Shown piece by piece: positions 12,871 to 64,000 of a DNA stretch of 64,000 bases; the first letter of the stretch is position 1; every line of letters starts with the position of its first letter. Origin of the DNA: Siphonodentalium dalli. Its lineage: Eukaryota; Mollusca; Scaphopoda; Gadilida; Siphonodentaliidae. The position numbers and the translations under genes are program-made. Location: positions 5,900,734 to 5,964,733 of the forward strand of contig CP136061.1 in assembly GCA_032622095.1 (NCBI GenBank). The letters are read 5' to 3'. The notes beneath the pieces were generated by a model. The model was given only the letters and a program-made list of their open reading frames with translations. It was not told the DNA's origin and did not search any database.

Positions 12871-14240
12871 TGATTTTACTCTTTGTATGACTAAATCCTT
12901 TAGCACGGGCTACAGGTTGTACCTTTAGTCTGATCATCATAAAATTTGTCAAGAATGTTAATAATGACATGTAGATGGGAACGAGTCATTTTTGGGTCAT
13001 TCGGCCAAACAACATGGCCGCCAGCAGCCATCTTGGATTTTACTCTTTGTATGACTAAATCATTTAGCACGGGCTACAGGTCGTACCTTTAGTCTGATCA
13101 TCATAAAATTTGTCATGGTTGTTGAAATTGGAATGAAGATGGGAACGAGTCATTTTGGGTTCATTCGGACAAAAAACATGGCCGCTAGCGGCCATCTTGG
13201 ATTTCAAAATTTAATCCATTAGCACGAGCCACAGGTCGTACTGCTTGTCTGATCATCATGAAATTTGTCATGGATGATAATATTGACATGTAGATGGGAA
13301 CGAGTAATTTTGGGGTCATTCGGCCAAAAAACATGGTCGCCAGCAGCCATCTTGGATTTTACTCGTTGTATGACTAAATCCTTTAGCACGGGCTACAGGT
13401 TGTATCTTTAGTCTGATCGTCATTAAATTTGTCATGAATGTTACTAATGACATGTAGATGGGAACGAGTCATTTTGGGGTCATTCGGCCATAAAACATGG
13501 CCACCAGCAGCCATCTTTGATTTTACTCTTTGTATGACTAAATCCTTTAATTAGCATGGGCTACAGGTCATACCTTTAGTCTGATCATCATAACATTTGT
13601 CATGGCTGTTGAAATTGGAATGTAGATGGAAACGAGTCATTTTGGGTTATTCGGACAAAAAACATGGCCGCCAGCGGCCATCTTGGATTTAAAAATTTAA
13701 TCCATTAGCATGGGCCACATGTCATACTGTTAGTCTGATCATCATGAAATTTGTCATGGATGTTAATATTGACATGTAGATGGGAATGGGCTACAGGTTG
13801 TACCTTTAGTCTGATCATCATTAAATTGTCATGAATGTTAATAATGACATGTAGATGGGAACGAGTCATTTTAGGGTCATTCGGCCAAAAAACATGGCCG
13901 CCAGCAGTCATCTTTGATTTTACTCTTTGTATGACTAAATCCTTTAGCACGGGCTACAGGTCGTACCTTTAGTCTGATCATCATAAAATTTGTCATGGCT
14001 GTTGAAATTGGAATGTAGATGGGAACGAGTAATTTTGGGGTCATTTGGCCAAAAAACATGGCCGCCAGCAGCCATCTTGGATTTTACTCTTTGTATGACT
14101 AAATTTTTTAGCACGGGCTACAGGTCGTACCTTTAGTCTAAACGTCATAAAATTTGTCATGGATGTTAATGATGACATGTTGACATTTTGGGGTCATTCG
14201 GCCGAAAACATGGCCGCCAGCAGCCATCTTGGATTTTACT

Positions 14241-17131: not shown

Positions 17132-17218
17132 CAATGGTGAATCTACTCACTCCCTGCTGGAAGCGACTCAACTCAGAAACAAACTAGTCAAATCGTATGA
17201 ATACATAGATGCAATAAG
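17132..17218 (+). CDS. RBSN: Rabenosyn-5-like exon (internal, partial gene)
   Basis: An 87-bp exon between a good acceptor (TTTTCCTTTTCAG, ending 17131) and a consensus donor (AAG|GTGAGT, GT at 17219). Reading with one leading base gives 28 codons, including HSLLEATQLRNKLVKSYEYI, and ends on two bases of a split codon. Joined to the exon at 23052 the split codon becomes AGT and the frame continues through IDAISKRI. Frame continuity across the splice is the main support. Rabenosyn-5 is a FYVE-domain effector of Rab5 and Rab4 on early endosomes. This exon lies between the FYVE region, which is not in the window, and the Rab-binding coiled coil. The 3' end of the exon is copied ~87 times in the following intron. 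Confidence 0.78.
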
Positions 17219-20200
17219 GTGAGTTGATCATTTAACAAACAGTCAAATCGTATGAATACATAGATGCAATAAGGTGAGTTAATATAACAAACAGTCAAAT
17301 CGTATGAATACATAGATGCAATAAGGTGAGTTGATCATTTAACAAACTAGTCAAATCATATGAATACATAGATGTAATAAGGTGAGTTGATCATTTAACA
17401 AACAGTCAAATCGTATGAATACATAGATGCAATAAGGTGAGTTGATCATTTAACAAACTAGTCAAATCATATGAATACATAGATGTAATAAGGTGAGTTG
17501 ATCATTTAACAAACTAGTCAAATCATATGAATACATAGATGCAATAAGGTGAGTTGATCATTTAACAAACAGTCAAATCATATGAATACATAGATGGAAT
17601 AAGGTGAGTTGATCATTTAACAAACTAGTCAAATCATATGAATACATAGATGCAATAAGGTGAGTTGATCATTTAACAAACAGTCAAATCATATGAATAC
17701 ATAGATGCAATAAGGTGAGTTGATCATTTAACAAACAGTCAAATCGTATGAATACATAGATGCAATAAGGTGAGTTGATCATTTAACAAACAGTCAAATC
17801 GTATGAATACATAGATGCAATAAGGTGAGTTGATCATTTAACAAACTAGTCAAATCATATGAATACATAGATGCAATAAGGTGAGTTGATCATTTAACAA
17901 ACAGTCAAATCATATGAATACATAGATGCAATAAGGTGAGTTGATCATTTAACAAACAGTCAAATCGTATGAATACATAGATGCAATAAGGTGAGTTGAT
18001 CATTTAACAAACAGTCAAATCATATGAATACATAGATGGAATAAGGTGAGTTGATCATTTAACAAACTAGTCAAATCATATGAATACATAGATGCAATAA
18101 GGTGAGTTGATCATTTAACAAACTAGTCAAATCATATGAATACATAGATGCAATAAGGTGAGTTGATCATTTAACAAACTAGTCAAATCATATGAATACA
18201 TAGATGCAATAAGGTGAGTTGATCATTTAACAAACAGTCAAATCATATGAATACATAGATGCAATAAGGTGAGTTGATCATTTAACAAACAGTCAAATCG
18301 TATGAATACATAGATGCAATAAGGTGAGTTGATCATTTAACAAACAGTCAAATCGTATGAATACATAGATGCAATAAGGTGAGTTGATCATTTAACAAAC
18401 AGTCAAATCATATGAATACATAGATGCAATAAGGTGAGTTGATCATTTAACAAACAGTCAAATCGTATGAATACATAGATGCAATAAGGTGAGTTGATCA
18501 TTTAACAAACAGTCAAATCATATGAATACATAGATGGAATAAGGTGAGTTGATCATTTAACAAACTAGTCAAATCATATGAATACATAGATGCAATAAGG
18601 TGAGTTGATCATTTAACAAACAGTCAAATCATATGAATACATAGATGCAATAAGGTGAGTTGATCATTTAACAAACTAGTCAAATCGTATGAATACATAG
18701 ATGCAATAAGGTGAGTTAATATAACAAACAGTCAAATCGTATGAATACATAGATGCAATAAGGTGAGTTGATCATTTAACAAACAGTCAAATCATATGAA
18801 TACATAGATGCAATAAGGTGAGTTGATCATTTAACAAACTAGTCAAATCATATGAATACATAGATGCAATAAGGTGAGTTGATAATTTAACAAACAGTCA
18901 AATCATATGAATACATAGATGCAATAAGGTGAGTTGATCATTTAACAAACTAGTCAAATCATATGAATACATAGATGCAATAAGGTGAGTTGATCATTTA
19001 ACAAACAGTCAAATCATATGAATACATAGATGGAATAAGGTGAGTTGATCATTTAACAAACAGTCAAATCATATGAATACATAGATGGAATAAGGTGAGT
19101 TGATCATTTAACAAACAGTCAAATCATATGAATACATAGATGCAATAAGGTGAGTTGATCATTTAACAAACTAGTCAAATCGTATGAATACATAGATGCA
19201 ATAAGGTGAGTTGATCATTTAACAAACTAGTCAAATCATATGAATACATAGATGCAATAAGGTGAGTTGATCATTTAACAAACAGTCAAATCATATGAAT
19301 ACATAGATGGAATAAGGTGAGTTGATCATTTAACAAACAGTCAAATCATATGAATACATAGATGGAATAAGGTGAGTTGATCATTTAACAAACAGTCAAA
19401 TCATATGAATACATAGATGCAATAAGGTGAGTTGATCATTTAACAAACTAGTCAAATCATATGAATACATAGATGCAATAAGGTGAGTTGATCATTTAAC
19501 AAACAGTCAAATCGTATGAATACATAGATGCAATAAGGTGAGTTGATCATTTAACAAACAGTCAAATCATATGAATACATAGATGCAATAAGGTGAGTTG
19601 ATCATTTAACAAACAGTCAAATCATATGAATACATAGATGCAATAAGGTGAGTTGATCATTTAACAAACTAGTCAAATCGTATGAATACATAGATGGAAT
19701 AAGGTGAGTTGATCATTTAACAAACAGTCAAATCATATGAATACATAGATGCAATAAGGTGAGTTGATCATTTAACAAACAGTCAAATCATATGAATACA
19801 TAGATGCAATAAGGTGAGTTGTTAATTTAACAAACTAGTCAAATCGTATTAATACATAGATGCAATAAGGTGAGTTGTTAATTTAACAAACTAGTCAAAT
19901 CGTATGAATACATAGATGCAATAAGGTGAGTTGATCATTTAACAAACAGTCAAATCATATGAATACATAGATGGAATAAGGTGAGTTGATCATTTAACAA
20001 ACAGTCAAATCATATGAATACATAGATGCAATAAGGTGAGTTGATCATTTAACAAACTAGTCAAATCGTATGAATACATAGATGGAATAAGGTGAGTTGA
20101 TCATTTAACAAACAGTCAAATCATATGAATACATAGATGCAATAAGGTGAGTTGATCATTTAACAAACAGTCAAATCATATGAATACATAGATGCAATAA

Positions 20201-21985
20201 GGTGAGTTGATCATTTAACAAACAGTCAAATCATATGAATACATAGATGCAATAAGGTGAGTTGATCATTTAACAAACTAGTCAAATCGTATGAATACAT
20301 AGATGGAATAAGGTGAGTTGATCATTTAACAAACAGTCAAATCATATGAATACATAGATGGAATAAGGTGAGTTGATCATTTAACAAACAGTCAAATCAT
20401 ATGAATACATAGATGCAATAAGGTGAGTTGATCATTTAACAAACAGTCAAATCATATGAATACATAGATGCAATAAGGTGAGTTGATCATTTAACAAACT
20501 AGTCAAATCGTATGAATACATAGATGGAATAAGGTGAGTTGATCATTTAACAAACAGTCAAATCATATGAATACATAGATGCAATAAGGTGAGTTGATCA
20601 TTTAACAAACAGTCAAATCATATGAATACATAGATGCAATAAGGTGAGTTGATCATTTAACAAACAGTCAAATCATATGAATACATAGATGCAATAAGGT
20701 GAGTTGATCATTTAACAAACAGTCAAATCGTATGAATACATAGATGCAATAAGGTGAATTGATCATTTAACAAACTAGTCAAATCATATGAATACATAGA
20801 TGCAATAAGGTGAATTGATCATTTAACAAACTAGTCAAATCATATGAATACATAGATGCAATAAGGTGAGTTGATCATTTAACAAACAGTCAAATCGTAT
20901 GAATACATAGATGCAATAAGGTGAGTTGATCATTTAACAAACAGTCAAATCATATGAATACATAGACGCAATAAGGTGAGTTGATCATTTAACAAACAGT
21001 CAAATCGTATGAATACATAGATGCAATAAGGTGAGTTGATCATTTAACAAACTAGTCAAATCGTATGAATACATAGATGCAATAAGGTGAGTTGATCATT
21101 TAACAAACAGTCAAATCGTATGAATACATAGATGCAATAAGGTGAATTGATCATTTAACAAACTAGTCAAATCATATGAATACATAGATGCAATAAGGTG
21201 AGTTGATCATTTAACAAACAGTCAAATCATATGAATACATAGATGCAATAAGGTGAGTTGATCATTTAACAAACTAGTCAAATCGTATGAATACATAGAT
21301 GCAATAAGGTGAGTTGATCATTTAACAAACAGTCAAATCGTATGAATACATAGATGCAATAAGGTGAGTTGATCATTTAACAAACAGTCAAATCATATGA
21401 ATACATAGATGCAATAAGGTGAGTTGATCATTTAACAAACAGTCAAATCGTATGAATACATAGATGCAATAAGGTGAGTTGATCATTTAACAAACAGTCA
21501 AATCGTATGAATACATAGATGCAATAAGGTGAGTTGATCATTTAACAAACAGTCAAATCGTATGAATACATAGATGCAATAAGGTGAGTTGTTAATTTAA
21601 CAAACTAGTCAAATCGTATTAATACATAGATGCAATAAGGTGAGTTGATCATTTAACAAACTAGTCAAATCGTATGAATACATAGATGCAATAAGGTGAG
21701 TTGATCATTTAACAAACAGTCAAATCGTATGAATACATAGATGCAATAAGGTGAGTTGATCATTCAACAAACAGTCAAATCGTATGAATACATAGATGCA
21801 ATAAGGTGAGTTGATCATTTAACAAACAGTCAAATCGTATGAATACATAGATGCAATAAGGTGAGTTGATCATTTAACAAACAGTCAAATCGTATGAATA
21901 CATAGATGCAATAAGGTGAGTTGATCATTTAACAAACAGTCAAATCGTATGAATACAATAGATGCAATAAGGTGAGTTGATAATT
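17177..21985 (+). repeat. 55/56-bp minisatellite carrying a consensus 5' splice site
   Basis: About 87 tandem copies. Each unit spans AGTCAAATCGTATGAATACA, TAGATGCAATAAG|GTGAGT and TTGATCATTTAACAAAC. The first copy is the real exon end plus donor at 17218/17219, so the array arose by amplifying an exon-intron junction. Variants are CAGTC or CTAGTC (55 or 56 bp), CGTATG or CATATG, and GATGCA or GATGGA, mixed along the array. Nearly every unit keeps the perfect donor AAG|GTGAGT; a few near 20750-20820 and 21140 have GTGAAT instead. Confidence 0.95.
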
Positions 21986-22155
21986 AACCAACACTATTTT
22001 CTAAGGTTTAAACATCTGCTGATCATGATCGGTCTGTCATTTCCGTTACTTGTCAGGATTCTTCAATATGTGAGATTGTATATGCCGAAACAATGTGTGT
22101 CTTTTTAAATGTTTAAGCATATATGATATCAATATATATTTTTTTCCATTCCCAG

Positions 22156-42719: not shown

Positions 42720-44375
42720 CTTTTTAGCTCAACTTTACTTTGTAAAGTTTGAACTATTGCCATGGCTTGGTATCCGTCGTCTGTGTGTGTGTGCGTGTGT
42801 GATTCGTCAACAATTTCCTTTAGCACGGGCTACAGTTCGTACCTTTGATCCAATTATTATGAAATTTGTCATGGATGTTGACATTGACATGTAGATGGGA
42901 ACAAGTCATTTTGGGGTCATTCGGAAAAAAAAGATGGCCGCCAGTGGCCATCTTGGATTTCAAAATTCAATCCATTAGCACGGGCTACAGGCCGTACTGT
43001 TCGTCTTATTGTCATGAAATTTGTCATGGATGTTAATATTGACAAGTGGATGGGAACGAGTAATTTTGGGGTTGTTCGGCCAAAAAACATGGCCACCGGC
43101 AGCCATCTTAGATTTTACTCTTTGCATGACTAAATTCTTTGGCACGGCCTACAGGTCGTACCTTTGGTCGGATCATCATAAAATGTGTCATGGATGTTAA
43201 CAATGACATGTAGATGGGAACGAGTCATTTTGGGGTCATTCGGCCCAAAAACATGGCCGCCAGCAGCCATCTTAGATTTACTCTTTGCATGACTAAATCC
43301 TTTAGCACGAGCTACAGGTCGTACCTTTAGTCGGATCATCATGAAATTTTTCATGGCTGTTGAAATTGGAATGTAGATGGGAACGAGTCGTTTTGGGGTC
43401 ATTTGGACAAACAACATGGCCGCCAGTGGCCATCTTGGATTTCAAAATTCAATCCATTAGCACGGGCTACAGGTCGTACCTTTGGTCTGATCATCATGAA
43501 ATTTGTCACGAATGTTAACATTGACATGTAGATGGGAACGAGTAATTTTGGGGTCATTCGGCCCAAAACATGGCCGCCGGCAGCCATCTTAGATTTACTC
43601 TTTGCATGACTAAATCCTTTAGCACGGGCTACAGGTCGTACCTTTAGTCGGATCATCATGAATTTTTTCATGGCTATTGAAATTGGAATGTAGATGGGAA
43701 CGAGTCGTTTTGGGGTCATTTGGACAAACAACATGGCCACCAGTGGCCATCTTGGATTTCAAAATTCAATCCATTAGCATGGGCTACAGGTCGTACCTTT
43801 GGTCTGATCATCATGAAATTTGTCATGAATGTTAACATTGACATGTAGATGGGAACGAGTAATTTTGGGGTCATTCGGCCCAAAAACATGGCCGCCGGCA
43901 GCCATCTTAGATTTACTATTTGCATGACTAAATTCTTTGGCACGGCCTACAGGTCGTACATTTGGTCGGATCATCATAAAATGTGTCATGGATGTTAACA
44001 ATGACATGTAGATGGGAACGAGTAATTTTGGGGTCATTCGGCAAAAAAACATGGCCGCCAGCAGCCATTTTGGATTTTACTCTTTGTATGACTAATTCCT
44101 TTAGCACGGGCTACAGGTCGTACCTTTAGTCTGATCATCATGAAATTTTTCATGGCTATTGAAATTGGAATGTAGATGGGAAAGAGTCATTTTGGGGTTA
44201 TTCGGACAAAAAACATGGCCGCCAGCTGCCATCTTGGATTTTACTCTGTGTATGACTAAATCCTTTACTGCTCATTTTTTACACTCCTTTTTAATCTCTG
44301 TATTCATTGCCAATCACACTAAAATTACCTTCTTTACAAAGTTGAGCTACAGTGTCATTGACACTTTCATTAATG
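42720..44375 (+). mobile_element. Complete HINE/pearl-like element with 9-10 monomers
   Basis: The left end TTTTTAGCTCAACTTTACTT leads into GTATCCGTCGTC, a TG microsatellite and then nine to ten ~163-bp monomers (42825-44275) of the same family as the array at 1-14240. The right end has AAAGTTGAGCT (44338-44348), an inverted copy of AGCTCAACTTT (42726-42736), then the palindrome AGTGTCATTGACACT (44351-44365). Subterminal inverted repeats, a tandem core, a microsatellite and a 3' hairpin are the plan described for bivalve pearl/CvA elements and HINEs. The interior is non-coding. Confidence 0.72.
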
Positions 44376-52593: not shown

Positions 52594-53323
52594 ACAAATT
52601 AGACTATTCGGATTAATACATATTTTAATATTTGGACATTTACAATTGTATTAATCCTTCTAGTCTAATAAAAGAGCTGAAAGCAAAGTTAGCACACATT
52701 TTGAAGCAGGTCAACATCAGTGACCACCGATATGACCCCATCAAATCAAAAATTCTAAATACCATTTTCTCTTAAATTATCTACAAATACATTAGTCTTA
52801 CCTGTAGCGGAGATAGTATTCTTTGTGTTCACACATAGATTGTGATATAAAAGTTGTCAGAATTACAGATTTGTTAGTTTAATCCCGGATTGGAAAACAT
52901 ATCACGATTTTCAAATACATATAAATTATGTTAATTTCGCGTGTTTTCCCAGATTTCTGATCTATTACGCATGCGCGTGCTTTCGTTTTCGTATGTGTTC
53001 GCTAGCGTAGACGGGTTTGAATATTTCTGTCGGTTGAGTTGTTATAAAATTATATGGATTAATAGTGACACAAATTTATGCTAGTTAGTTCAGTCATGAT
53101 ATTTAACATTCCAACAAAAGGTACATGTATGTGTTTTTTATTTGTAGTTTTATTTGTGTCATTAGACGTGAACAGTGTAAGTTAAAGGGACATGCCCTTG
53201 CCACATAACTCTTGCGGCTTCGTAGCGTTCAAAGTTTTCACGTCCTTTGTTGGACGATGAGGGATTAAGACCACATAAATGTCCAAATATTAAAATAGGT
53301 CTTAATCCGAATCGTCTAATTTG
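52594..53323. mobile_element. ~730-bp element with ~48-bp inverted ends
   Basis: CAAATTAGACTATTCGGATT and TTTTAATATTTGGACATTTA at the left are repeated in reverse complement at 53272-53323. The right end abuts the truncated LINE. There is no coding sequence inside; AT-rich with CATGCGCGTGC near 52970. Confidence 0.65.
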
Positions 53324-54768: not shown

Positions 54769-55104
54769 TGTGTCAGCTCGCCCGAGCCAACTGGCTCCTA
54801 GTGATAATGTCTTATTTAAGTTGTTGTGTTATCTTTTTGGGGTATGGCAAAGATAAGCTTATTTATATAAGGTTCTCACCTGTTTTACTCTCCTAGTCCT
54901 TCCAGCTATATACTTCCCTGGCGTGCTTTACCGATGGCGGTCCCGATTCAAGAGAGCGCACACTTCATTTTTAGCTCCGCCCTTCTCTCCCGTCTTTCTC
55001 CCTTATTACCCAATCACAGGCCAGTTAGAGTTCAAGGTGTCAAAGGTTACAGTTCATGGTTTCTTATGGGTCAGAGGTCATAGTTCATACTGACATATTC
55101 TACA
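54769..55104 (-). mobile_element. 3' LTR of the gypsy-like retrotransposon (end approximate)
   Basis: On the minus strand the LTR starts TGTAGAATATGTCAG directly after the purine tract. A TATA-like AGTATATAGC lies at about 54903-54915. I place the far end at GCTGACACA (54769) because it gives TGT...ACA borders, but the 5' LTR is outside the window, so this end is a guess. Confidence 0.5.
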
Positions 55105-55117
55105 CTCCTCCCCCTCC
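55105..55117 (-). promoter_or_regulatory. Polypurine tract
   Basis: On the minus strand GGAGGGGGAGGAG lies immediately before the TG start of the LTR. This is the expected primer site for plus-strand DNA synthesis. Confidence 0.7.
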
Positions 55118-55255: not shown

Positions 55256-55441
55256 TGCCATAGCTCAGCGTTCCTCGCTGTTCCCACATTGCAGCTCAGC
55301 GTTCCTCGCTGTTCCAATATTGTAGCTCAGCGTTCCTCGCTGTTCCCATATAGCAGCTCAGCGTTCCTCGCTGTTCCCATATAGCAGCTCAGCGTTCCTC
55401 GCTGTTCCCATATAGCAGCTCAGCGTTCCTCGCTGTTCCCA
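55256..55441 (-). repeat. 31-bp tandem repeat over the ORF3 end
   Basis: About six copies of CAGCTCAGCGTTCCTCGCTG + TTCCCATATAG (31 bp). The first copy in reading direction encodes the natural end of the TatD domain (GTARNAELLY). Because 31 is not a multiple of three, the second copy is read in a new frame (GNSEER) and hits TGA at 55389. The array grew from the coding end into the 3' UTR. Confidence 0.9.
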
Positions 55442-58073
55442 TGCCAATGACTTCTTGGGTTTGACCCCTTATTTCCGCCACAGCAGCCACTACTTCGCCT
55501 ATATTCTTTGGGCTAGAAAATGCCCTGTTCCCTGCAAAGTACGGTCCATCCGTCTCTACCAGCAATCTTTCGTCCGGAACACTCCTCAAGGCCTCTTTCT
55601 GCTCTTCATCAAAATGTTTCACCAGCCCAGTAAACCCAAAATAACAATTTGGTAACTCCATCCATTCCCTCAGTACTTCAGATCTCTGTGAGCAACAATG
55701 GAGATGCAGTGGTTGGTTGACAAGCCTCATTCTCCTAATGATGTTCAATGCAATCCTTGCCACTCGATCTCCATACCTGCTGGCTCCTCTAAGGTGTAGA
55801 ATGATGGGCTTACTGGGCATGCTTAGTTTTAGGAGGTCTATGAACAGCCGTTCTTGTAAGTCGAATGAGGATGGGTGACTAGTATCATCCAGGCCAATCT
55901 CTCCCAAAGCACACACCGAACGATGGTTCAGATAATCTCTAATAAGATCCAGGGTGTGGCTTGAAGCCTGCCGATAGTTTTTCGGGTGAAACCCTATAGC
56001 CGTTCTCCACCTCTGACCAAGATCCACTGTCCAGGGGTAAGACTCCGGATCACAAAATACCGCAACCCCACCGATTACGCTACATGGGACCTTTCCGTCC
56101 GGAAATCCCTCAAAATATTGGTCCCAACAAAGGGTATCGGTGCCCTTGTTCGCTCGCTCCAGAATCCGATCCGGGTGGAAATGACTGTCATATAATTTGA
56201 GCAGTGGCTTTGGGGGAGGATCAGCGAGAGCGTCTTCACACTCCACCCAGGCCTCCAAACTGTCATCCTCCAGTTCTATCTCCAAAACCCCGCACTTCTC
56301 GGTCTCCATGGGGCAGGTCTGGAGTTCTCCCTGGGACTCTAAGAACATTTCTTCCTCTGGTGGAGACTTTGGTGTTGACTCTATACTGCTATCCTGACTG
56401 TCTGTGGCCCCAGCCTGGCTCAACCCGGTGAGGGGTCGAGTCAAAGTACTGGGCTCCTCAGGCACCCTCTCTTCGACTTGAGTCTTCCGATCCATCTCGG
56501 TTAGGGGACGGACCATAGAATAATCCTCCGTACTCACCAGTACCTCCTGGGTAGCAATCGTCTGGTCCCACCCGGTTAGCGGTAGGATCATAGGCGACTC
56601 TACATCTTCATTGGTGGAGCACTCCTGATCCAACCCGGTGAGGGGTCGAACCACAGAAGCACTTCTCCCATATACTCTGATCCAATGCTCCTCCCGTGAC
56701 AATCCATCTTCTCTATCTCTACAGCACTGTTTCAACTCATCCAATTTCTCCGGCTTAAGCATTTGAAGCAACACATAGAGAACCCTCCAATATAAAAAAC
56801 AAGCAGGGGAGTTAATAGGACTCAACCTACATTGTACAGTTTCCCCATCCTGAAAACATGGATCAGTGGACCGGCGCAGCCTATCTATGTAAAACTTGTA
56901 CATGTCTCCTGATATACTAGTATCGGGCGAAATCAGTCGGTCAGAATTAATCTTGTCGATCAAAGGTTTGAAGTGTTCTAAGGTCACCGCCTCAATAGGA
57001 ATCCTTTGAATAAATCCAACCAGTGTTTTTATTCCCTCTGCCATTTGTTGACATATTATCTCAGCCTGTTCAATTGAAACCGGTTCCCACAAAGTCTCTG
57101 GAACATGCGCATACAAGACATGTCGTTTCAATTGTGAAAACCTTCCCCTACATATCAAGCATAGAGTATTTCTGTTCTGCCTTAATCCTGCTTTCTTCAA
57201 ATTCTGTTTAAGACGCCACCTGCGATAACTTCTAAGGGTGGAAAACTTCTTTTCTGTCCTCGGCTGTGGAGTCGATGGTAATTCTCCCAGTCTGCTCCTC
57301 TCTTCATCCCTTCGAATTACATCTTTGAAAAAGGCTGGTGGTATCGTATGTTCCTCATCCCCTGCAGATAATATTACATTGTTAGCCGATCGAAATAATT
57401 TGAAGCCAGCCTGCAAATATTTATTTATATCCAAATATATTGCCACTTCACTTAGGGGCCTCATTCCACTAACCACAGTTTTATTTTCCGGTTCATGGGT
57501 GGAGAAGTGGATCATCTGTCTCCCCATGGTCTTAAGCCCTTCAACCTTAATTTTCGCCCAATTTTCCAATGACGTTCCATGCACCGCTTGTTCCAATTCT
57601 TCGCATGTTAAGATGGGTGTCAATTCTAGTTTCTCAACTGGTGTGGAGTGAGCTTGGTAAGCCTTGATCTCCATTAGTTCCATTAATCCTCTCTTTGATT
57701 GTCTTAATGCAAATCTGTTTTTTTCATTAGTATTTACTACCCGTGTGATGTCTTCTCTGGTCACCCCATGAAGAAATGGGTCCTTGAGCAAAATCTGTAC
57801 TTCCATATACCCTTCCTTATTTATTTTTGTGGTATGACGGAGCAAATACGACAAATGTCTCCCGATAGCTTCGTCATTTGGTTTCTTCCTACCTGGCCTA
57901 TCAGTCCTAAAATGGTGGACCGCAACAGGGTCTTCGCAAACTACTTGTTGAAGCGTGTTCTGAGAATCACGGTGGGATTGATTTAAATCTAGTGACTCAC
58001 TATGTCTTGATGGTGTCCAGTAATGTGATTTCCTTCTGTCCCTCTCATTCATTCTTAACTTCTTTGCTGACAT
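55389..58073 (-). CDS. Retrotransposon ORF3: Tpt1/KptA RNA 2'-phosphotransferase - zinc finger - TatD nuclease fusion
   Basis: 894 residues, ATG at 58073, starting 43 bp after the pol stop and in another frame. Residues ~65-255 form a Tpt1/KptA domain: LSYLLRH (R79, H80), NEKNRF (R120), HGTSLENW, MGRQMIHF (R185), SGMRPLSEVAIYLD and ILSAG. Tpt1 enzymes remove an internal RNA 2'-phosphate using NAD+. The Arg-His-Arg-Arg set needed for this appears present, although the usual IRANQGHS is IKAYQAHS. Residues 305-323 form a C2H2 finger (C305, C308, H318, H323). Residues 476-553 hold four PLTG/PLTE motifs. Residues ~627-888 form a TatD metal nuclease: DSHFHPD, GEIGLD (E725), H760, H792 and ETDGPY (D842), all metal ligands kept. 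It occupies the place of env in errantiviruses but shows no signal peptide or membrane segment. The role in the element's life cycle is unknown. Confidence 0.88.
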   Translation of the reverse strand: MSAKKLRMNERDRRKSHYWTPSRHSESLDLNQSHRDSQNTLQQVVCEDPVAVHHFRTDRPGRKKPNDEAIGRHLSYLLRHTTKINKEGYMEVQILLKDPFLHGVTREDITRVVNTNEKNRFALRQSKRGLMELMEIKAYQAHSTPVEKLELTPILTCEELEQAVHGTSLENWAKIKVEGLKTMGRQMIHFSTHEPENKTVVSGMRPLSEVAIYLDINKYLQAGFKLFRSANNVILSAGDEEHTIPPAFFKDVIRRDEERSRLGELPSTPQPRTEKKFSTLRSYRRWRLKQNLKKAGLRQNRNTLCLICRGRFSQLKRHVLYAHVPETLWEPVSIEQAEIICQQMAEGIKTLVGFIQRIPIEAVTLEHFKPLIDKINSDRLISPDTSISGDMYKFYIDRLRRSTDPCFQDGETVQCRLSPINSPACFLYWRVLYVLLQMLKPEKLDELKQCCRDREDGLSREEHWIRVYGRSASVVRPLTGLDQECSTNEDVESPMILPLTGWDQTIATQEVLVSTEDYSMVRPLTEMDRKTQVEERVPEEPSTLTRPLTGLSQAGATDSQDSSIESTPKSPPEEEMFLESQGELQTCPMETEKCGVLEIELEDDSLEAWVECEDALADPPPKPLLKLYDSHFHPDRILERANKGTDTLCWDQYFEGFPDGKVPCSVIGGVAVFCDPESYPWTVDLGQRWRTAIGFHPKNYRQASSHTLDLIRDYLNHRSVCALGEIGLDDTSHPSSFDLQERLFIDLLKLSMPSKPIILHLRGASRYGDRVARIALNIIRRMRLVNQPLHLHCCSQRSEVLREWMELPNCYFGFTGLVKHFDEEQKEALRSVPDERLLVETDGPYFAGNRAFSSPKNIGEVVAAVAEIRGQTQEVIGMGTARNAELLYGNSEER

Positions 58074-58116
58074 CTAAAAATTAGGAATAGACTTTGTACG
58101 ATGAAGCTGAACATTA

Positions 58117-61100
58117 TTAATTACACTCAGGACAGACGTATTGTTTTAAAGCTCGTCCTTGTTTTGCAGTAACCTTAACGCACTCCCCATGATACCATTC
58201 CCTGCAGCTGTCACATTGGATCATGAATTTGCCATCGTCTATTTTATTGCACCAGCAGTACAGAATATCTGCAGAGGAAATAGAGGCTCTTTCCTCCCCT
58301 CTTTTAATGACGGCCCGTAGCCATTTTGGCAGTTCCTCATCTCGACACAACTTAAGTCGGTCATGATGGAGTGTTACTAAACCGGTCTTAAGTCTGACCT
58401 TAAAGGTGCTCTTAGAAAGTAACTGCATTATTACGCCCGGTCCCTTCCAGTTCACCGATAGTTTTTTATTTTTCCCCTTGATAACTGCTGTGTCGCGTAG
58501 GTAAACTATATCTCCCAACTTAAATGGTTTACAAAACATCCTGGCATCGTACTTTTTCTTCATTTGGACCTGAGACTGTTTTAGTTTATCTCTAGCAATC
58601 TCATGGGCGACCCTCATTGTATTTTCCAGTTCCAAAACAAACTCAGGTATATTTTCCATGCTTTTATGAGGGAAATTTGTGGGGTACATGAGGTCGACGG
58701 GTTTGGTTACCTCTCTGCCCAACATCAAACGATTCGGAGTGAAACCGGTTTGCCGACAAACCGATGATCGCAAAGCTCCAGCTATTTGGGGTAGGAAAAT
58801 GTCCCAACTTTTCTGTTTTTTGCCCACAAAGCAGCGCACCGCGTCCATTAAAGTTCTATTATATCTTTCGCATTGGCCATTAGCGGATGGTCTATATGGC
58901 GAGCATCGGAGCTTATCAATATTCAGTGCCTTACACATTTCCGCAAAAAGATCGCTCTCAAAGTTCCGCCCTTGGTCTGTCAAAATCCCAAATGGAAGAC
59001 CAAAGCGAGTAAAGAATTCATTTATCGCTGCCCGCGCCGTATCAATAGCTGTTTGAGAAGGTAATGGAATACATTCCACCCATTTGGTGAAAGAGTCAAC
59101 GATCATGAGGACATATTCATTTCCCTGTTCCGTCCTCGGTAATGGCCCCAAAAAGTCCATGTGCACGCGTTCCATAGGTGCCCCCATTTGAATTTGTTGA
59201 AGTGGAGTGCGAGGGTGCCGGCTTTGCTTTTTACAAACATTGCAAGTCTTGCAGGCTGCCACCCAGATCTCAACATCGTTATTTAGCCCAACCCAATAAC
59301 CAATTTCCTTGACCCGCTCTTTCGTTCTACTCATTCCTTGGTGTCCAGAAAGTGGAACATTGCGGCATAACTCAAATATTTCTTTTCTCATATTAAATGG
59401 AACCACTATAACTTTTCGCCCAGTCTTGCGGGTTCTATACAAAACATTATCATTATCAAGAACGCAAAGTTCCTTATTTAACCAATAATTTTTGGCAGCA
59501 GGGCTAGATATCAGTAAATCCCCTTCCGAAGGTTCCACAGTGTTGATTAGCCAATTCAAAATAAGTTTGAGATCTGGGTCAGCGTCTTGAGCTAGCTTAA
59601 TATCGTCCGATGAGTGCTTTTGAAATTCCACTAACTGGACCGATGGTTTATGTTCAGGACCTGACCCCTTTCCGGTGAGGGAAAGGGCCATAGGATCCTT
59701 GGTTTCTCTATTTATAGTCTCTCCACCCGGATCCCAGGTCTCGTGTAGGCCTAATGGAGTATTTGGGATCAAAGGCTGTGTAAGCAACTTATTGGGGACC
59801 TCTTTGTGAGGGTTAGTCAGGTTAGTTTGAGGAGAATCCATGGTTGGTGTTACTCCAGCTGAGGCCCAAAATAAATTTAAATCAAATTTAGCGCTTTGCT
59901 CCCTTTTTCCAATTCGTGAAATGGCAGACAGAGGTATTATGTCATTCACTTCTTCCTCAAATTTCTTTCTCTTCAACTCAACCCTTTTGCAGTAGGCACA
60001 TCCCCCACAAGGCAGCGATTCAATCCCAGTCTCTGCTTTACAATATTCGTCCCATGGGATCCTACTCAGCGCATCTGCATTCGAATGTTTTTCACCCTTC
60101 CGAAATACTATTTGCATGTTAAATTGACTTAATTCGAGGAGCCATCTAGCCAATTGGCCTTGGGGCTCCTTGAAATTCATCAACCACGTAAGACTGCTGT
60201 GGTCTGTACGGAGCGTAAAAGGTTTGCCCAATAAATAATGCTTGTATTGGCGAGTAAAACATACGACAGCTAAAAGTTCCTTACGTGTGGTGCAATAATT
60301 CCGCTGTTCCTTTGATAAAGCTAGACTCCCATAGCAAATAACTTTTTCTTGCCCATTTTGTATCTGAATTAATTCAGCCCCCATACACGTTTGTGAACAA
60401 TCGGTATCTAGCAGATATGGGTCGGTTTTATTCGGAAGGGCCAATACTGGTGGGCTCGTTAGAAGTTTCCGAAGGTTTTGCCAGGCAGATTCTTCAGAAT
60501 CTCCCCATGAAAAAGGTTTTTTCCTTATAGAATCGTATAACGGTTTGGCAAGTTCTGCAAAATCTTTAACAAAGTTACGGTGATAGTTAACTAACCCCAT
60601 AAACCGCTCCACTTCCTTCGCTGATCGTGGACGTGGCCAATCTTTGACTACTTGAGTCGCACTATCCCCCATTTCTAGCCCGTTTGCACTTATGACTCTT
60701 CCAAGGAATTGCACTTCTTTTTGGAACAGAAGACATTTCCGGGGTTTTAGTTTTAAGCCATATTCCCGAAACCTCAATAGGACTTCTTTTAAATTGTTTA
60801 TGTGCGAATCTACTCCCTGCCCCATAACCAAACAATCGTCTACGAATGCCAAAGTGGTCTTCCAGAGGAGCCCGCGCAACACAAGATTCATTGCCCGACA
60901 GTAACTAGCTACCGCGCCCGTCAGTCCAAAACTTAAGCGTTCAAACTCAAAAATCCCGTATTTAGTAATAAACGCAGTCTTAGGTTGGTCTTCCTCTCGG
61001 ATACGGAGCTGGTAATACGCCTGGTTGCAGTCCAATTTTGAAGCCCATTCGTTGTCAGCTAGTGCCGCAAGACAATCATCGACTAGCGGTAGGGGAAATT

Positions 61101-63006
61101 GATCTTTTTTGGTTACCGCGTTCAATTTTCGATAATCTAAGCACCACCGCACCGTATGATCGGGTTTACGGATAAGAACCGGGACTGAACACCACTCGGA
61201 CATAGAAGGTTTAATTATTCCGGCGCCCAAAAGTTTCTTCAAGTGCGACTCCTCCTCCCCCGCAAAGGCTTCCGGGGTCCTGCGCATTCTTAATTTAACG
61301 GGTGTTGCATCACCAGTAGGAATGGTGTGCTCTATAGCCGTAAAGTGCCCAAGATCATATTCGTGGGTAGCAAAAATGTCTTGGAATTCTATTAATAAGT
61401 CTTTTAATTTCAATTGTTCTGAATAATTCAAGTGTACTATTGACCTTTCAAAAAGTTGTGATAAATGAGGGGGCAATGTTGAGATATTTCCATTTTCCAC
61501 CACAGTTTCATTGACTCGTGGGTGATTATCGCAAATCCTTTCCGACGTCAGTGAACTAATCTCAGAAACATGAGAGATTTGACGGTTCTTCCTCAGCGTT
61601 ACCGAAGACCCGGTAGGATTTAAAATGCAACAAAGTATTTCAGTGGTCCCTTTACTGTGTAACGAACACCCCACAATTATTTTATCCCCTATAACTGGTT
61701 CTACTATAAAATCGTGGGCCATGGAATTTACTCTACAACCGACCAGCCTACCTGTACGAGGGGGAATCACACATTTATTGGAAATCATTACCGGTTGAAT
61801 CCTTTCTTCCGGTTTTTTATCATTCATCCTTTGGTTAGAAAACAAATAGGAACCTACGTGTACGTCACTCTCCCTCCCGGGGCCTGTACCGACTATCATA
61901 CTCTCGCCAAGTTGGTCCTCAGGCGGTAAGACCGGGAGATCAGAACTTGCAGTCATATTGTCACCAAGTTGGTCCTCCGGCGGCAAGGCCGGGAGCTCAA
62001 AACTTGCAGTCATATTCTCACCAAGTTGGTCCTCCGGCAGCAAAGCCGGAAGATCAAAACTTGCAGTCATACTCTCACCAAGTTGGTCCTCCGGCAGCAA
62101 AGCCGGAAGATCAAAACTTGCAGTCATACTCTCACCAAGTTGGTCCTCCGGCGGCAAGGCCGGGAGATCAAAACTTTCAGTCATACTTTTACCAAAAAGA
62201 TGAGGACACTTCCTATTGACTGTACCAATTCCCACCAGCCCAAATGTACACAAAGGACTACCACAAGATATAGGAATGAGTTCGTTATTGAGGCGGAGTT
62301 CATCATTTAAGAGGTCTAAGGTCATAAAATGTTTTTTCATGAAATCATAGCCTAAGAGCATTTGATCATAAATGGGTGCTACATAGAAATTTTCCTGAAA
62401 GATTTGGGCTCCCAATTTAATCTCTACTGGCCCTACATATAACCCTCCCATACCAGAATTCCTGGCGGCTAACTTTAAGTTCACATGATTTATAATTGGC
62501 GGTGTTATAGTAAAACCTTCAAAAATCTTATCGGAAATTATGGAGACTTCTGCGGCTGAATCTATTACCGATTCCACTTCCATACCATTTAGAAATACAT
62601 TCACCATCGCCAACGGTCTTTGAACCTTATGAATCCCAACTACCGGATCGGCTGGTAAAGAGTTGCTGAGAATGTTAGGTAGAGTTTTTCCCTCTAAATC
62701 TCCCAGCAACCCTTGACAGGCCTGGTCCCTTAAAAGTGTTTGGGCTGTGATAAAGTTTGAGACTGCCATCGAGTCCTTTAAACCATTGAGTACCAAACCC
62801 TCTTGCGCCGTAAACTCTGATGTTAAATCAATCAAAATTCCCTCCGGTACTGAAATAACCTCGGGTATTGTATCACTTGAGAAATTGATCAAATCGTCAG
62901 GTATTGATTTAACTATTGAATCCATTAAGTTGTCGGGTATTGGGTTAACTTTATTGGATACCCGGCTGATATTATTGAGAGGAAATGGCTCCCCTTTAAC
63001 GGACAA
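58117..63006 (-). CDS. pol: Gypsy-type Pol polyprotein with C-terminal PHD finger
   Basis: 1629 residues as read from a TTG at 63006; the frame is open upstream into the gag overlap, so pol is probably made by -1 frameshifting. Order: N-terminal linker; retropepsin with catalytic DSA (149-151) and LLGYDF; five 22-residue repeats (about 274-369); reverse transcriptase (VRWCLDYRKLNAVTKKDQFP, catalytic FVDD at 721-724); RNase H (D867, TDHSSL at 934-939); integrase zinc region (H1222, C1252, C1255, but Arg1214 where the first His is usual); integrase core (D1284, D1344, E1380); C-terminal integrase domain (KLGDIVYL, VNWKGPG); and a PHD finger (C1584, C1586, C1598, C1601, H1606, C1609, C1625, C1628). 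The domain order PR-RT-RH-IN marks Ty3/gypsy. The frame is intact from end to end, suggesting a young copy. Confidence 0.95.
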   Translation of the reverse strand: MSVKGEPFPLNNISRVSNKVNPIPDNLMDSIVKSIPDDLINFSSDTIPEVISVPEGILIDLTSEFTAQEGLVLNGLKDSMAVSNFITAQTLLRDQACQGLLGDLEGKTLPNILSNSLPADPVVGIHKVQRPLAMVNVFLNGMEVESVIDSAAEVSIISDKIFEGFTITPPIINHVNLKLAARNSGMGGLYVGPVEIKLGAQIFQENFYVAPIYDQMLLGYDFMKKHFMTLDLLNDELRLNNELIPISCGSPLCTFGLVGIGTVNRKCPHLFGKSMTESFDLPALPPEDQLGESMTASFDLPALLPEDQLGESMTASFDLPALLPEDQLGENMTASFELPALPPEDQLGDNMTASSDLPVLPPEDQLGESMIVGTGPGRESDVHVGSYLFSNQRMNDKKPEERIQPVMISNKCVIPPRTGRLVGCRVNSMAHDFIVEPVIGDKIIVGCSLHSKGTTEILCCILNPTGSSVTLRKNRQISHVSEISSLTSERICDNHPRVNETVVENGNISTLPPHLSQLFERSIVHLNYSEQLKLKDLLIEFQDIFATHEYDLGHFTAIEHTIPTGDATPVKLRMRRTPEAFAGEEESHLKKLLGAGIIKPSMSEWCSVPVLIRKPDHTVRWCLDYRKLNAVTKKDQFPLPLVDDCLAALADNEWASKLDCNQAYYQLRIREEDQPKTAFITKYGIFEFERLSFGLTGAVASYCRAMNLVLRGLLWKTTLAFVDDCLVMGQGVDSHINNLKEVLLRFREYGLKLKPRKCLLFQKEVQFLGRVISANGLEMGDSATQVVKDWPRPRSAKEVERFMGLVNYHRNFVKDFAELAKPLYDSIRKKPFSWGDSEESAWQNLRKLLTSPPVLALPNKTDPYLLDTDCSQTCMGAELIQIQNGQEKVICYGSLALSKEQRNYCTTRKELLAVVCFTRQYKHYLLGKPFTLRTDHSSLTWLMNFKEPQGQLARWLLELSQFNMQIVFRKGEKHSNADALSRIPWDEYCKAETGIESLPCGGCAYCKRVELKRKKFEEEVNDIIPLSAISRIGKREQSAKFDLNLFWASAGVTPTMDSPQTNLTNPHKEVPNKLLTQPLIPNTPLGLHETWDPGGETINRETKDPMALSLTGKGSGPEHKPSVQLVEFQKHSSDDIKLAQDADPDLKLILNWLINTVEPSEGDLLISSPAAKNYWLNKELCVLDNDNVLYRTRKTGRKVIVVPFNMRKEIFELCRNVPLSGHQGMSRTKERVKEIGYWVGLNNDVEIWVAACKTCNVCKKQSRHPRTPLQQIQMGAPMERVHMDFLGPLPRTEQGNEYVLMIVDSFTKWVECIPLPSQTAIDTARAAINEFFTRFGLPFGILTDQGRNFESDLFAEMCKALNIDKLRCSPYRPSANGQCERYNRTLMDAVRCFVGKKQKSWDIFLPQIAGALRSSVCRQTGFTPNRLMLGREVTKPVDLMYPTNFPHKSMENIPEFVLELENTMRVAHEIARDKLKQSQVQMKKKYDARMFCKPFKLGDIVYLRDTAVIKGKNKKLSVNWKGPGVIMQLLSKSTFKVRLKTGLVTLHHDRLKLCRDEELPKWLRAVIKRGEERASISSADILYCWCNKIDDGKFMIQCDSCREWYHGECVKVTAKQGRALKQYVCPECN
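61900..62187 (-). repeat. 66-bp in-frame tandem repeat in pol
   Basis: Encodes about five copies of a 22-residue unit around LPALPPEDQLGESMTASFD, between the protease and the reverse transcriptase. The period is exactly 22 codons, and copies differ by a few residues (GEN, GDN, SSD). The plus-strand frames over it are shadows. Confidence 0.92.
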
Positions 63007-63098
63007 TTCATTTACATGTACATCTGTGTAATCAATATTTACATTTATTAGCTCATTCTTACCAACTTCCTTGAGACCATCTACAAATGGAGCCGGAA

Positions 63099-64000
63099 TC
63101 AGGCCTCTTGACCCGACTCTCTGAAGTTTGACATGCCCATTTTGTTTCCGGTTTCCGCATTTTCCGGAGGCGCTGAACGATTAAAGGGCTTGCCACTGGG
63201 ACAATTTCGAGCGTAATGGCCCCTACCCCCACAAGAAAAACAGGTAAACCTCCCTCCATTTTCCTTACTAAACCGGTTAGGCCTCTGATCATTTCCGCGC
63301 CCCCTTCCACGACCTACTCCGGGTTGAAGGTTAGATATTTGACGCATCAAAACTCCGTAGCCATCCTCAGTATTGGAGGCTTGCGACTTAACTTCTACTC
63401 TCGATACTCCCGGAGAATATTCACTTTCAAATGCCCCAACACTTCGTACTTCCCTTTTTCTTCCCAGGGCTTGAGTGGCTTGAATGTATTTCACCTTTTT
63501 TACTGCATCTTCTATGTTTGGTAGTTGGAGCCCGTTGGTATAATCCCCAGAATTCCGATCATAAAGCCCTTGACAAAATCTGGCCACAGCTTGTCCCATT
63601 ATAATATTTTCCGGTGACCCTTTCCATACTTTAGAAGCCTTCATAAGAACCCGATCCGCCCACTCCTGTAGGAGTTCATCTCTATTTTGGGTCATACTCA
63701 AGAATTGGGCGCTTAGAGTTTCGGGCGGTTGTTGGGCCCCATAATGAACCACCAATTTGTCCATCACGGCTTGGAAACCCAAATCCGGATGATTTTCGGA
63801 AAGAAAAGCGTAGTAGTCAAGAACCTTTCCCTCCAAGCTTAAACATAAGGCCGTTAATTTCTCAACTGCAGTCAATTGATGTAAAACAGCGAAGCTTTCA
63901 AACTTAGCCCGAAAACCTTCAAAGCTATTGCGGCCATCAAATTTCAATCCATGAGGGAGATTAGGAAACTTATGTCTTCGATCCCTTTCCTGAACATGGT
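63099..64000 (-). CDS. gag: Gag (5' part outside the window)
   Basis: The frame is open to the right edge of the window; residues HKFPNLPHG precede LKFDGRNSFEGFRAKFESFA. Numbering from that leucine, about 160 residues resemble the retrotransposon capsid fold (LSLEGKVLDYY, LSAQFLSMTQNRDELLQEWA, ARFCQGLYD). An Arg/Gly stretch (RGRGRG) and one CCHC zinc knuckle follow (CFSCGGRGHYARNC, residues 236-249), typical nucleocapsid features for RNA binding. Stop TGA at 63099. The pol frame overlaps the last ~80 bases in the -1 frame. The protein would assemble the particle that packages element RNA. Confidence 0.92.
   Translation of the reverse strand, partial: HVQERDRRHKFPNLPHGLKFDGRNSFEGFRAKFESFAVLHQLTAVEKLTALCLSLEGKVLDYYAFLSENHPDLGFQAVMDKLVVHYGAQQPPETLSAQFLSMTQNRDELLQEWADRVLMKASKVWKGSPENIIMGQAVARFCQGLYDRNSGDYTNGLQLPNIEDAVKKVKYIQATQALGRKREVRSVGAFESEYSPGVSRVEVKSQASNTEDGYGVLMRQISNLQPGVGRGRGRGNDQRPNRFSKENGGRFTCFSCGGRGHYARNCPSGKPFNRSAPPENAETGNKMGMSNFRESGQEA

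What the first reader, a model, noticed from the sequence alone, without database searches (positions are those of the whole stretch)
55389..58073. Retrotransposon ORF3 fuses an RNA 2'-phosphotransferase to a TatD nuclease
Seen: one intact 894-codon ORF between pol and the purine tract/LTR, with Tpt1/KptA motifs, a C2H2 finger and a full set of TatD metal ligands. Known: Tpt1 heals 2'-phosphates left by tRNA splicing or RNA end repair and can also ADP-ribosylate nucleic-acid ends; TatD enzymes are metal-dependent 3'-5' nucleases. Inference: the element carries its own nucleic-acid end-processing enzyme, perhaps to undo a host RNA or DNA end-modification defence, to process the cDNA, or to repair nicked genomic RNA or tRNA primer. 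I know of no characterised retrotransposon with this pair, though uncharacterised TatD-like and KptA-like proteins are common in invertebrate annotations and may be this same ORF.
Basis: partly seen in the sequence, partly recalled or inferred. Interest (0 to 1): 0.92.

Follow-up and report, generated by a model that had tools for sequence, protein, structure and literature searches.

The report
Jumping gene carrying two RNA-end enzymes
A recently mobile animal retrotransposon carries, in the place where related viruses keep their envelope gene, one protein that joins an enzyme acting on phosphorylated RNA or DNA ends to a TatD-type nuclease, and the same pair recurs in several distant families of such elements in the same genome.

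Summary
Confirmed. The 894-codon ORF (minus strand, 58073 to 55389) joins Tpt1/KptA (Pfam E 3.7e-44), a C2H2-type motif, a helical region and a TatD nuclease (E 1.1e-35), between a Ty3/gypsy pol ending in a PHD finger and the purine tract and 3' LTR.

It belongs to the element: in the host genome 9 of 9 copies tested have two LTRs and a 4-bp target duplication; 7 of 9 LTR pairs are identical; ORF3 is open in 6 of 9. Three more lineages (Tpt1 identity 31-44%) carry the same pair behind PHD-ending pol. Tpt1 tetrad and TatD ligands are kept in 4 of 4, and substitution counts fit purifying selection. TatD is the wider trait; Tpt1 is present in some lineages. The host keeps its own, apparently intron-bearing Tpt1 gene.

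Most likely ORF3 is an accessory enzyme for element RNA and RNA-DNA hybrid ends; the step it serves is unproven. Enzymatic ORF3s are known in rotifer elements (PMC5408684), with other enzymes. Seven paper searches listed no retroelement with Tpt1 or TatD.

The parts
54821..54824 (-). target-site duplication (ACAA) flanking the 3' LTR
   Evidence: same four bases precede the 5' LTR at C1
54825..55104 (-). 3' LTR, 280 bp, TGTAGA...AACACA
   Evidence: 1 mismatch to the 5' LTR at C1:5967585-5967864, outside the window
55105..55116 (-). polypurine tract GAGGGGGAGGAG
   Evidence: immediately before the LTR; GAG(G/A)GGGAGGAG in 9 of 9 copies tested
55262..55442 (-). 31-bp tandem repeat, 5.8 copies, running across the ORF3 stop codon
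55389..58073 (-). ORF3, 894 aa: Tpt1 - C2H2/helical - linker - TatD
57360..57875 (-). Tpt1/KptA domain (aa 67-238); R79, H80, R120, R185 tetrad, H165-G166-T167
   Evidence: Pfam E 3.7e-44; alignments; motif positions
57105..57161 (-). C2H2-type motif (C305, C308, H318, H323)
   Evidence: not a Pfam hit
56709..57176 (-). C2H2 plus conserved helical region with NSPAC..YWR (about aa 300-455)
   Evidence: shared with ORFs of other animals; helical in the model
56214..56708 (-). low-confidence, repeat-bearing linker (about aa 456-620; RPLTG-like repeats); no sign of constraint on amino acids
   Evidence: pLDDT under 50 over much of it; dN/dS 0.79-1.49 where defined between the two subtypes and from the window copy
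55407..56195 (-). TatD nuclease domain (about aa 627-889); H631, H633, E725, H760, H792, D842
   Evidence: Pfam E 1.1e-35 over aa 667-889; fold match
58074..58093 (-). 3'-splice-site-like stretch CTATTCCTAATTTTTAG directly before the ORF3 ATG
   Evidence: as good a site in 99 of 1713 control windows
58117..63180 (-). pol open frame (protease, RT, RNase H, integrase)
58123..58257 (-). PHD finger at the end of pol, after the integrase
   Evidence: Pfam E 5e-9; also in lineages 2, 4, 5 and two Tpt1-less elements
63099..63998 (-). 3' part of gag with a CCHC-type zinc knuckle motif; continues beyond the window
   Evidence: knuckle seen by eye

Best explanation
ORF3 is a genuine gene of a young Ty3/gypsy-type LTR retrotransposon, in the env position. 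Shown: the anatomy, membership of the element, recurrence in divergent lineages, retained catalytic residues, purifying selection. Inferred: it is translated from a spliced subgenomic mRNA and works as an accessory enzyme on the element's own nucleic acids. The TatD domain (TATDN2-like) would cut or trim RNA, above all RNA held in RNA-DNA hybrids made during reverse transcription or integration. Tpt1 would use NAD+ to cap 5'-phosphate ends with ADP-ribose or to remove 2'-phosphates, protecting or clearing the ends. The C2H2/helical part would bind the substrate or the particle. TatD is the core; Tpt1 is an addition in some lineages. I put about 0.95 on the anatomy and element membership, about 0.8 on both domains being active enzymes, and about 0.35 on this particular division of labour; the figure below is for the statement as a whole.
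For: Domains and folds. Element membership: 9 of 9 lineage-1 copies tested with two LTRs and 4-bp duplications, 7 of 9 LTR pairs identical; 5 of 7 lineage-2 loci likewise. Pol end directly before ORF3 in 17 of 17 lineage-1 and -2 loci displayed. Lineages 4 and 5: PHD-ending pol, then ORF3. Tpt1 tetrad and HGT, and TatD ligand motifs, in 4 of 4 lineages. Selection: one pair per lineage pooled, Tpt1 19.5 synonymous to 15.5 nonsynonymous changes (3 pairs, P 6e-5 to 2e-3), TatD 23 to 10 (2 pairs, P 2e-8 to 3e-6). No membrane segment in lineage 1 (maximum 19-residue hydropathy 1.14), so not an obvious envelope. Biochemistry of relatives: human TRPT1 caps 5'-phosphate RNA and DNA through the same tetrad (PMC6582358 passages); TATDN2 is reported as an R-loop RNase (PMC12709183 passages).
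Against: No activity or transcript was measured. No donor-like splice motif was found in the leader pieces by simple patterns, and the lineage-2 acceptor is no better than chance (576 of 1713 control windows). In lineage 1 the TatD changes alone are few, with dN/dS from 0.23 to 1.25 where not zero or undefined. Lineage-1 Tpt1 departs from motif positions shared by the others (QAH for QGH, RQMIH for R-x-H-I/V-H). Neither human TATDN2 nor TATDN1 or TATDN3 was in the trees, so 'TATDN2-like' rests on names and topology. A related locus (L021) has lost Tpt1 and two TatD ligand positions yet keeps a 1483-aa frame.
Confidence: 0.55

Rival explanations
1. Counter-defence at RNA ends. Host small-RNA slicing and decay leave 5'-monophosphate fragments of element RNA; Tpt1 caps them with ADP-ribose, which would keep them out of Piwi-type proteins and 5'-3' decay, and TatD removes RNA from the other end. 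The protein would blunt silencing and not serve replication itself.
For: Human TRPT1 ADP-ribosylates 5'-phosphorylated RNA and DNA only, and the cap resists phosphatase (PMC6582358 passages). KptA is embedded in a few animal RNA-virus polyproteins (PMC9503650 passages). Tpt1 is present in some lineages and absent in others, as an arms-race gene might be. That Piwi proteins need a 5'-phosphate is recalled, not looked up.
Against: No small-RNA or capping data. The TatD core is wider than Tpt1, so the shared function cannot rest on capping alone.
Confidence: 0.2
2. Integration-site helper. The PHD finger on integrase brings the complex to active chromatin, and the TatD domain clears R-loops or processes nicked ends there; Tpt1 acts on the ends left behind.
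For: PHD finger after integrase in elements of all four Tpt1 lineages and in two Tpt1-less ones; TATDN2 reported as an R-loop RNase in germ cells (PMC12709183).
Against: No binding data; insertion sites were not compared with genes or chromatin.
Confidence: 0.15
3. Passenger genes: host Tpt1 and TatD sequences captured by chance and carried without function.
For: Retroelements capture host sequence; in rotifer elements ORF3 variation looked neutral (PMC5408684 passages); ORF3 is broken in 3 of 9 lineage-1 copies.
Against: The pair is kept at 31-44% Tpt1 identity across 4 lineages with tetrad and ligands retained, and substitution counts depart from neutral.
Confidence: 0.05
4. A host gene that happens to lie beside a retrotransposon.
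For: A separate host Tpt1 gene and probably host TatD genes exist in the genome.
Against: ORF3 lies inside the LTR-to-LTR unit with target duplications in 9 of 9 copies and is repeated across chromosomes.
Confidence: 0.01

Closest known systems
Enzymatic ORF3s of bdelloid rotifer LTR retrotransposons (Juno, Vesta; PMC5408684, abstract and passages)
   Same: Extra ORF after pol coding for an enzyme and not an envelope; one of the enzymes is a 3'-5' exonuclease for RNA or ssDNA ends; ORF3s there are said to be expressed from spliced messages.
   Different: Their enzymes are DEDDy exonuclease and GDSL esterase, not TatD or Tpt1; ORF3 variation there looked neutral, here it looks constrained.
TRPT1/Tpt1/KptA RNA 2'-phosphotransferase
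   Same: Fold, Arg-His-Arg-Arg tetrad, HGT motif; among solved structures the best sequence matches of lineages 1 and 2 are mammalian TRPT1.
   Different: Intronless, fused to TatD, carried by a mobile element; motif departures in lineage 1.
TATDN2-like TatD nucleases of animals
   Same: Nearest cellular relatives found for the TatD part (trees).
   Different: The long-N-terminal TATDN2-like proteins P0006 and P0023 lack the C2H2/helical module by inspection; ORF3s form a separate clade (support 98/97 and 100/98).
KptA domains in eukaryotic viruses (Beihai picorna-like virus, Botrylloides leachii nidovirus, sawfly nucleopolyhedroviruses, Bodo saltans mimivirus; PMC9503650, passages)
   Same: A mobile genetic parasite carrying Tpt1/KptA.
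   Different: RNA or large DNA viruses; in the passages seen the partner, where named, is Nudix; no TatD (the word does not occur in that paper's main text) and no LTR element named there.
C2H2-TatD ORFs in other animals' sequences (for example P0003, P0015, P0017 of Haliotis cracherodii)
   Same: C2H2 motif, helical region, TatD; several are clusters of 8-27 member sequences.
   Different: No Tpt1 in them; whether they lie beside pol could not be seen.

Membership tests
Ty3/gypsy LTR retrotransposon | pol order protease - RT - RNase H - integrase | tested here: met
   Pfam matches in that order; the protease matches (gag-asp_proteas, Asp_protease) are below their curated cut-offs, the other three above
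Ty3/gypsy LTR retrotransposon | two LTRs with TG...CA ends, purine tract, short target duplication | tested here: met
   9 of 9 lineage-1 copies tested; 5 of 7 lineage-2 loci
Ty3/gypsy LTR retrotransposon | primer-binding site complementary to a host tRNA | tested here: inconclusive
   TTGGCGACGAGAAT follows the 5' LTR in 9 of 9; a tRNA-Ser match is recalled only, no tRNA of this genome was compared
Ty3/gypsy LTR retrotransposon | placement in a named lineage by an RT tree | not tested
   no tree with reference elements was built
Tpt1/KptA | family profile above the curated cut-off | tested here: met
   151.3 bits against 26; lineages 2, 4, 5: 162.5, 142.4, 114.3 bits
Tpt1/KptA | Arg-His-Arg-Arg tetrad and HGT motif (PMC6333775, PMC6582358 passages) | tested here: met
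   4 of 4 lineages by alignment with mouse TRPT1 and 7yw4; not aligned directly to the C. thermocellum enzyme
Tpt1/KptA | NAD+-dependent 2'-phosphate removal or 5'-phosphate ADP-ribosylation | not testable with these tools
   needs an assay
TatD nuclease | family profile, fold and metal-ligand motifs | tested here: met
   the ligand set itself is recalled
TatD nuclease | nuclease activity | not testable with these tools
   needs an assay
TATDN2 orthologue | falls within the cellular TATDN2 group | tested here: not met
   ORF3s and C2H2-TatD ORFs form their own clade (98/97; 100/98); human TATDN2 not included
QatD anti-phage nuclease | NCBIfam QatD above cut-off | tested here: not met
   62.8 bits against 230
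Envelope gene of errantivirus type | membrane-spanning segment | tested here: not met
   maximum 19-residue hydropathy 1.14 in lineage 1; 1.74 in lineage 2 lies inside the Tpt1 domain; simple scale only

The most novel reading that the evidence does not exclude
It would be the first transposon-encoded RNA-capping counter-defence that I know of.
Probability: 0.12. Interest if true: 0.92.

Novelty: new variant of a known kind. Interest (0 to 1): 0.74.

Why it matters
Enzymatic third ORFs are known in a few retroelements, but neither Tpt1 nor TatD was named in any retroelement paper listed by my searches. Animal Tpt1 has no agreed physiological substrate; PMC7050489 and PMC6333775 (passages) stress that animal tRNA splicing leaves no 2'-phosphate. 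A mobile element that keeps Tpt1 under selection in several lineages points to a nucleic-acid-end problem in germ cells that such an enzyme solves, and gives a defined protein to assay. It may also explain why 'TATDN2-like' proteins are numerous in invertebrate annotations (inference).

Tried and rejected
Context in other species: viral contigs was scanned four times and genome contigs once with ORF3 or relatives; no relative was confirmed. So adjacency to pol is shown only in this one genome. Protein searches (candidates capped in 8 and 35) gave 50 proteins, 0 of which carry both Tpt1 and TatD; the fusion is therefore not shown outside this genome.

Single capture of Tpt1: the TatD tree puts lineages 4+5 and lineages 1+2+3 in two groups; one clade is not rejected (p-AU 0.34), so one or two captures remain open. 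Domain order differs (lineage 2: N-helical, Tpt1, C2H2, TatD; lineages 4 and 5: Tpt1, N-helical, C2H2, TatD; the N-helical part was recognised by profile in lineage 2 only, and by eye in 4 and 5).

Host gene: rejected for lineages 1 and 2. Locus L021 (lineage 3) had no pol match in it or in the flanks fetched (6.1 and 3.7 kb) and no convincing LTR pair; its copy number could not be tested. Three fragmentary matches (L022-L024) also gave no pol match in the 5.6-6.2 kb fetched. Of three Tpt1-less ORF3 loci opened, two (L059, L060) follow pol and one (L061) showed no pol frame of 150 aa in the 1.4 kb before it.

Splicing: acceptor-like sites are better than most control windows in lineages 1, 4, 5 (99, 66, 99 of 1713 as good), not in lineage 2 (576 of 1713); no donor-like motif by simple patterns. 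A canonical -1 slippery heptamer in the gag/pol overlap was looked for by eye and not seen.

Selection test: the pairs pooled are the window copy with C3 and the more divergent pairs of lineages 4 and 5, chosen after seeing the table; recombination between copies is not excluded. The TatD pool has two lineages only, because the lineage-5 comparison with L071 was made on the wrong strand and was dropped (on the right strand L070 and L071 agree in 271 of 271 residues).
Full report
What is there. The ORF at 55389-58073 is real, intact and on the minus strand. It encodes 894 aa: a Tpt1/KptA domain (aa 67-238, E 3.7e-44), a C2H2-type motif (aa 305-323), a helical region to about aa 455, a repeat-bearing linker, and a TatD domain (Pfam match aa 667-889, E 1.1e-35; the HFH motif at aa 631-633 extends it N-terminally). 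Models: TatD matches solved TatD nucleases with TM to target up to 0.82. The Tpt1 model is weaker (mean pLDDT 69.5), but mouse and human TRPT1 are its best matches.

Where it sits. Upstream on the same strand is a pol frame (63180 to 58120) with RT, RNase H, H2C2 and integrase above the curated cut-offs, weak protease matches below theirs, and a PHD finger at the C-terminus. Before it, gag runs off the window; gag and pol frames overlap by 79 nt. Downstream come a purine tract and a 280-bp LTR. The 5' LTR lies 8.8-9.1 kb upstream of the ORF3 start, outside the window, with one mismatch in 280 bp; the target duplication is ACAA. The unit is about 12.3 kb (from the coordinates).

It belongs to the element. 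A search of the host assembly (2.23 Gb, 9 contigs) with ORF3 listed 68 matches, 51 of 645 candidates having been scored. I tested nine lineage-1 copies for both ends: 9 of 9 have two LTRs and a perfect 4-bp duplication, 7 of 9 have identical LTRs, this copy has one mismatch, and one copy has one mismatch and one gap. ORF3 is open in 6 of the 9 (894 or 950 codons from the ATG; the 950 form has a 56-residue insertion in the linker); one has a single stop, one several, one is split by a frameshift. Insertion was therefore recent in evolutionary terms.

Other lineages. Lineage 2 has 1465-1492-codon frames without stops in 6 copies and holds Tpt1 (E 1.4e-47) and TatD (E 4.3e-36). It aligns with this ORF3 over aa 59-888 at 35% identity. 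It has 508-bp LTRs; 5 of 7 loci examined show both LTRs (99.8-100% identical) and a matching 4-bp duplication, one gave no 5' LTR in the piece fetched and one matched another copy. In 17 of 17 lineage-1 and lineage-2 loci displayed, the end of pol precedes ORF3. Lineages 4 (L053) and 5 (L054) were opened after a genome search with the Tpt1 profile (83 matches); both have a PHD-ending pol piece followed by a Tpt1 and TatD ORF3. In L054 the integrase part is incomplete (only a weak rve_3 match). Tpt1 identity between the four lineages is 31-44%.

TatD is the wider trait. A genome search with the TatD profile listed 150 matches, the scoring limit, from 529 candidates. Some must be ordinary host TatD genes, but many lie in frames of 900-1500 codons in near-identical groups. 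Of three Tpt1-less long frames that I opened, two follow a PHD-ending pol (L059, L060) and one showed no pol in the 1.4 kb fetched before it. In sequence databases, C2H2-TatD ORFs without Tpt1 occur in other animals: an abalone, a sea star protein named TATDN2, and a contig filed under a lucinid symbiont. None of the 50 proteins returned by three searches holds both domains. In the TatD tree the ORF3s fall with most of these ORFs (98/97, 100/98), beside TATDN2-like proteins and apart from bacterial ones.

Are the enzymes likely alive? [quoted passage not shown] so are the TatD motifs HxH, E, H, H, D. The tetrad matters for both 2'-phosphate removal and 5'-phosphate ADP-ribosylation (PMC6333775 and PMC6582358, passages). 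I placed it by alignment with mouse TRPT1 and by spacing, not by direct alignment with the C. thermocellum enzyme. Lineage 1 departs at two other motif positions (QAH, RQMIH). Substitution counts: pooled over one pair per lineage, Tpt1 shows 19.5 synonymous and 15.5 nonsynonymous changes (3 pairs), TatD 23 and 10 (2 pairs); under a neutral share of 0.70-0.77 nonsynonymous these have P 2e-3 to 6e-5 and 3e-6 to 2e-8. Counts per pair are small, the pairs were picked from the table, and lineage-1 TatD alone is not decisive. The linker shows no constraint (0.79-1.49 in pairs of the two subtypes and with the window copy), as expected if the domains and not the whole ORF are held.

Origin. Among solved structures the best sequence matches of the Tpt1 part in lineages 1 and 2 are mammalian TRPT1. 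The host genome holds what looks like its own TRPT1: two exon-like matches about 1.6 kb apart at C6:143.06 Mb and one at C9:175.23 Mb. The element copies are intronless, so capture of a processed animal transcript is likely (inference). Lineage 2 also has an N-terminal helical region that matches a profile of the N-termini of C2H2-TatD ORFs of other animals (E 1e-7 among 46 sequences).

How it may work. Inference, in order of support: (1) an accessory enzyme for element RNA and RNA-DNA hybrid ends; (2) a counter-defence that caps 5'-phosphate fragments; (3) a helper at integration sites together with the PHD-bearing integrase. TATDN2 is reported as an RNase that resolves R-loops and is needed in fish germ cells (PMC12709183, passages), which suits (1) and (3). 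TRPT1's 5'-phosphate capping suits (2). Expression from a spliced mRNA is plausible: acceptor-like sites precede the ORF3 start in lineages 1, 4 and 5, but the lineage-2 site is no better than chance and no donor motif was found by simple patterns.

Comparison with the known. Bdelloid rotifer LTR elements carry third ORFs for a DEDDy exonuclease or a GDSL esterase (PMC5408684, abstract and passages), so an enzymatic ORF3 is a known kind. KptA is known in a few eukaryotic viruses (PMC9503650, passages). Seven answered paper searches (some listings partial, open-access papers only) showed no retroelement with Tpt1 or TatD. Repbase and Dfam could not be consulted. I rate it a new variant of a known kind.

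Noticed in passing
58123-58257 (minus); L012, L053, L054, L059, L060: A PHD finger closes pol after the integrase in every lineage opened with a pol end. It resembles histone-tail-reading PHDs (recalled), as chromodomains do in chromoviruses, and might steer integration.
   Followed up: partly
L021 (C7:123455600-123462000), protein P0052: A 1483-aa open frame with two C2H2/helical regions, no Tpt1, and a TatD domain with HFR for HFH and GDIGID for GEIGLD; no pol or clear LTR pair nearby. It groups with this element's TatD (99/95). It may be a domesticated or decaying derivative.
   Followed up: partly
61896-62195: 57-bp in-frame tandem repeat (5.3 copies) in pol between protease and RT, encoding a repeated ESMTASFDLPALLPEDQLG-like unit.
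   Followed up: no
55262-55442: 31-bp tandem repeat crossing the ORF3 stop codon; since 31 is not a multiple of 3, the C-terminal residues are set by the repeat.
   Followed up: no
G000 C6:168573725-168849731: Six Tpt1 matches within 0.28 Mb, mostly short frames, some with stops: a cluster of unknown nature.
   Followed up: no
G000 C5:240196333-240197784: Lineage-1 TatD end lies inside a 2082-codon open frame, perhaps a pol-ORF3 read-through or other fusion.
   Followed up: no
52595-52642 and 53276-53323: 48-bp inverted repeats (94%) 633 bp apart, like the ends of a small DNA transposon, downstream of the element.
   Followed up: no
1-14240 and 42816-44267: Long satellite arrays with related units (periods about 164, 320, 483) and a 55-bp array at 17178-21993.
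   Followed up: no
literature, PMC6962438 (one passage): A gene labelled TATDN2 lies among transposon-like genes in the giant squid Hox cluster figure; it may be such an ORF3 (inference).
   Followed up: no
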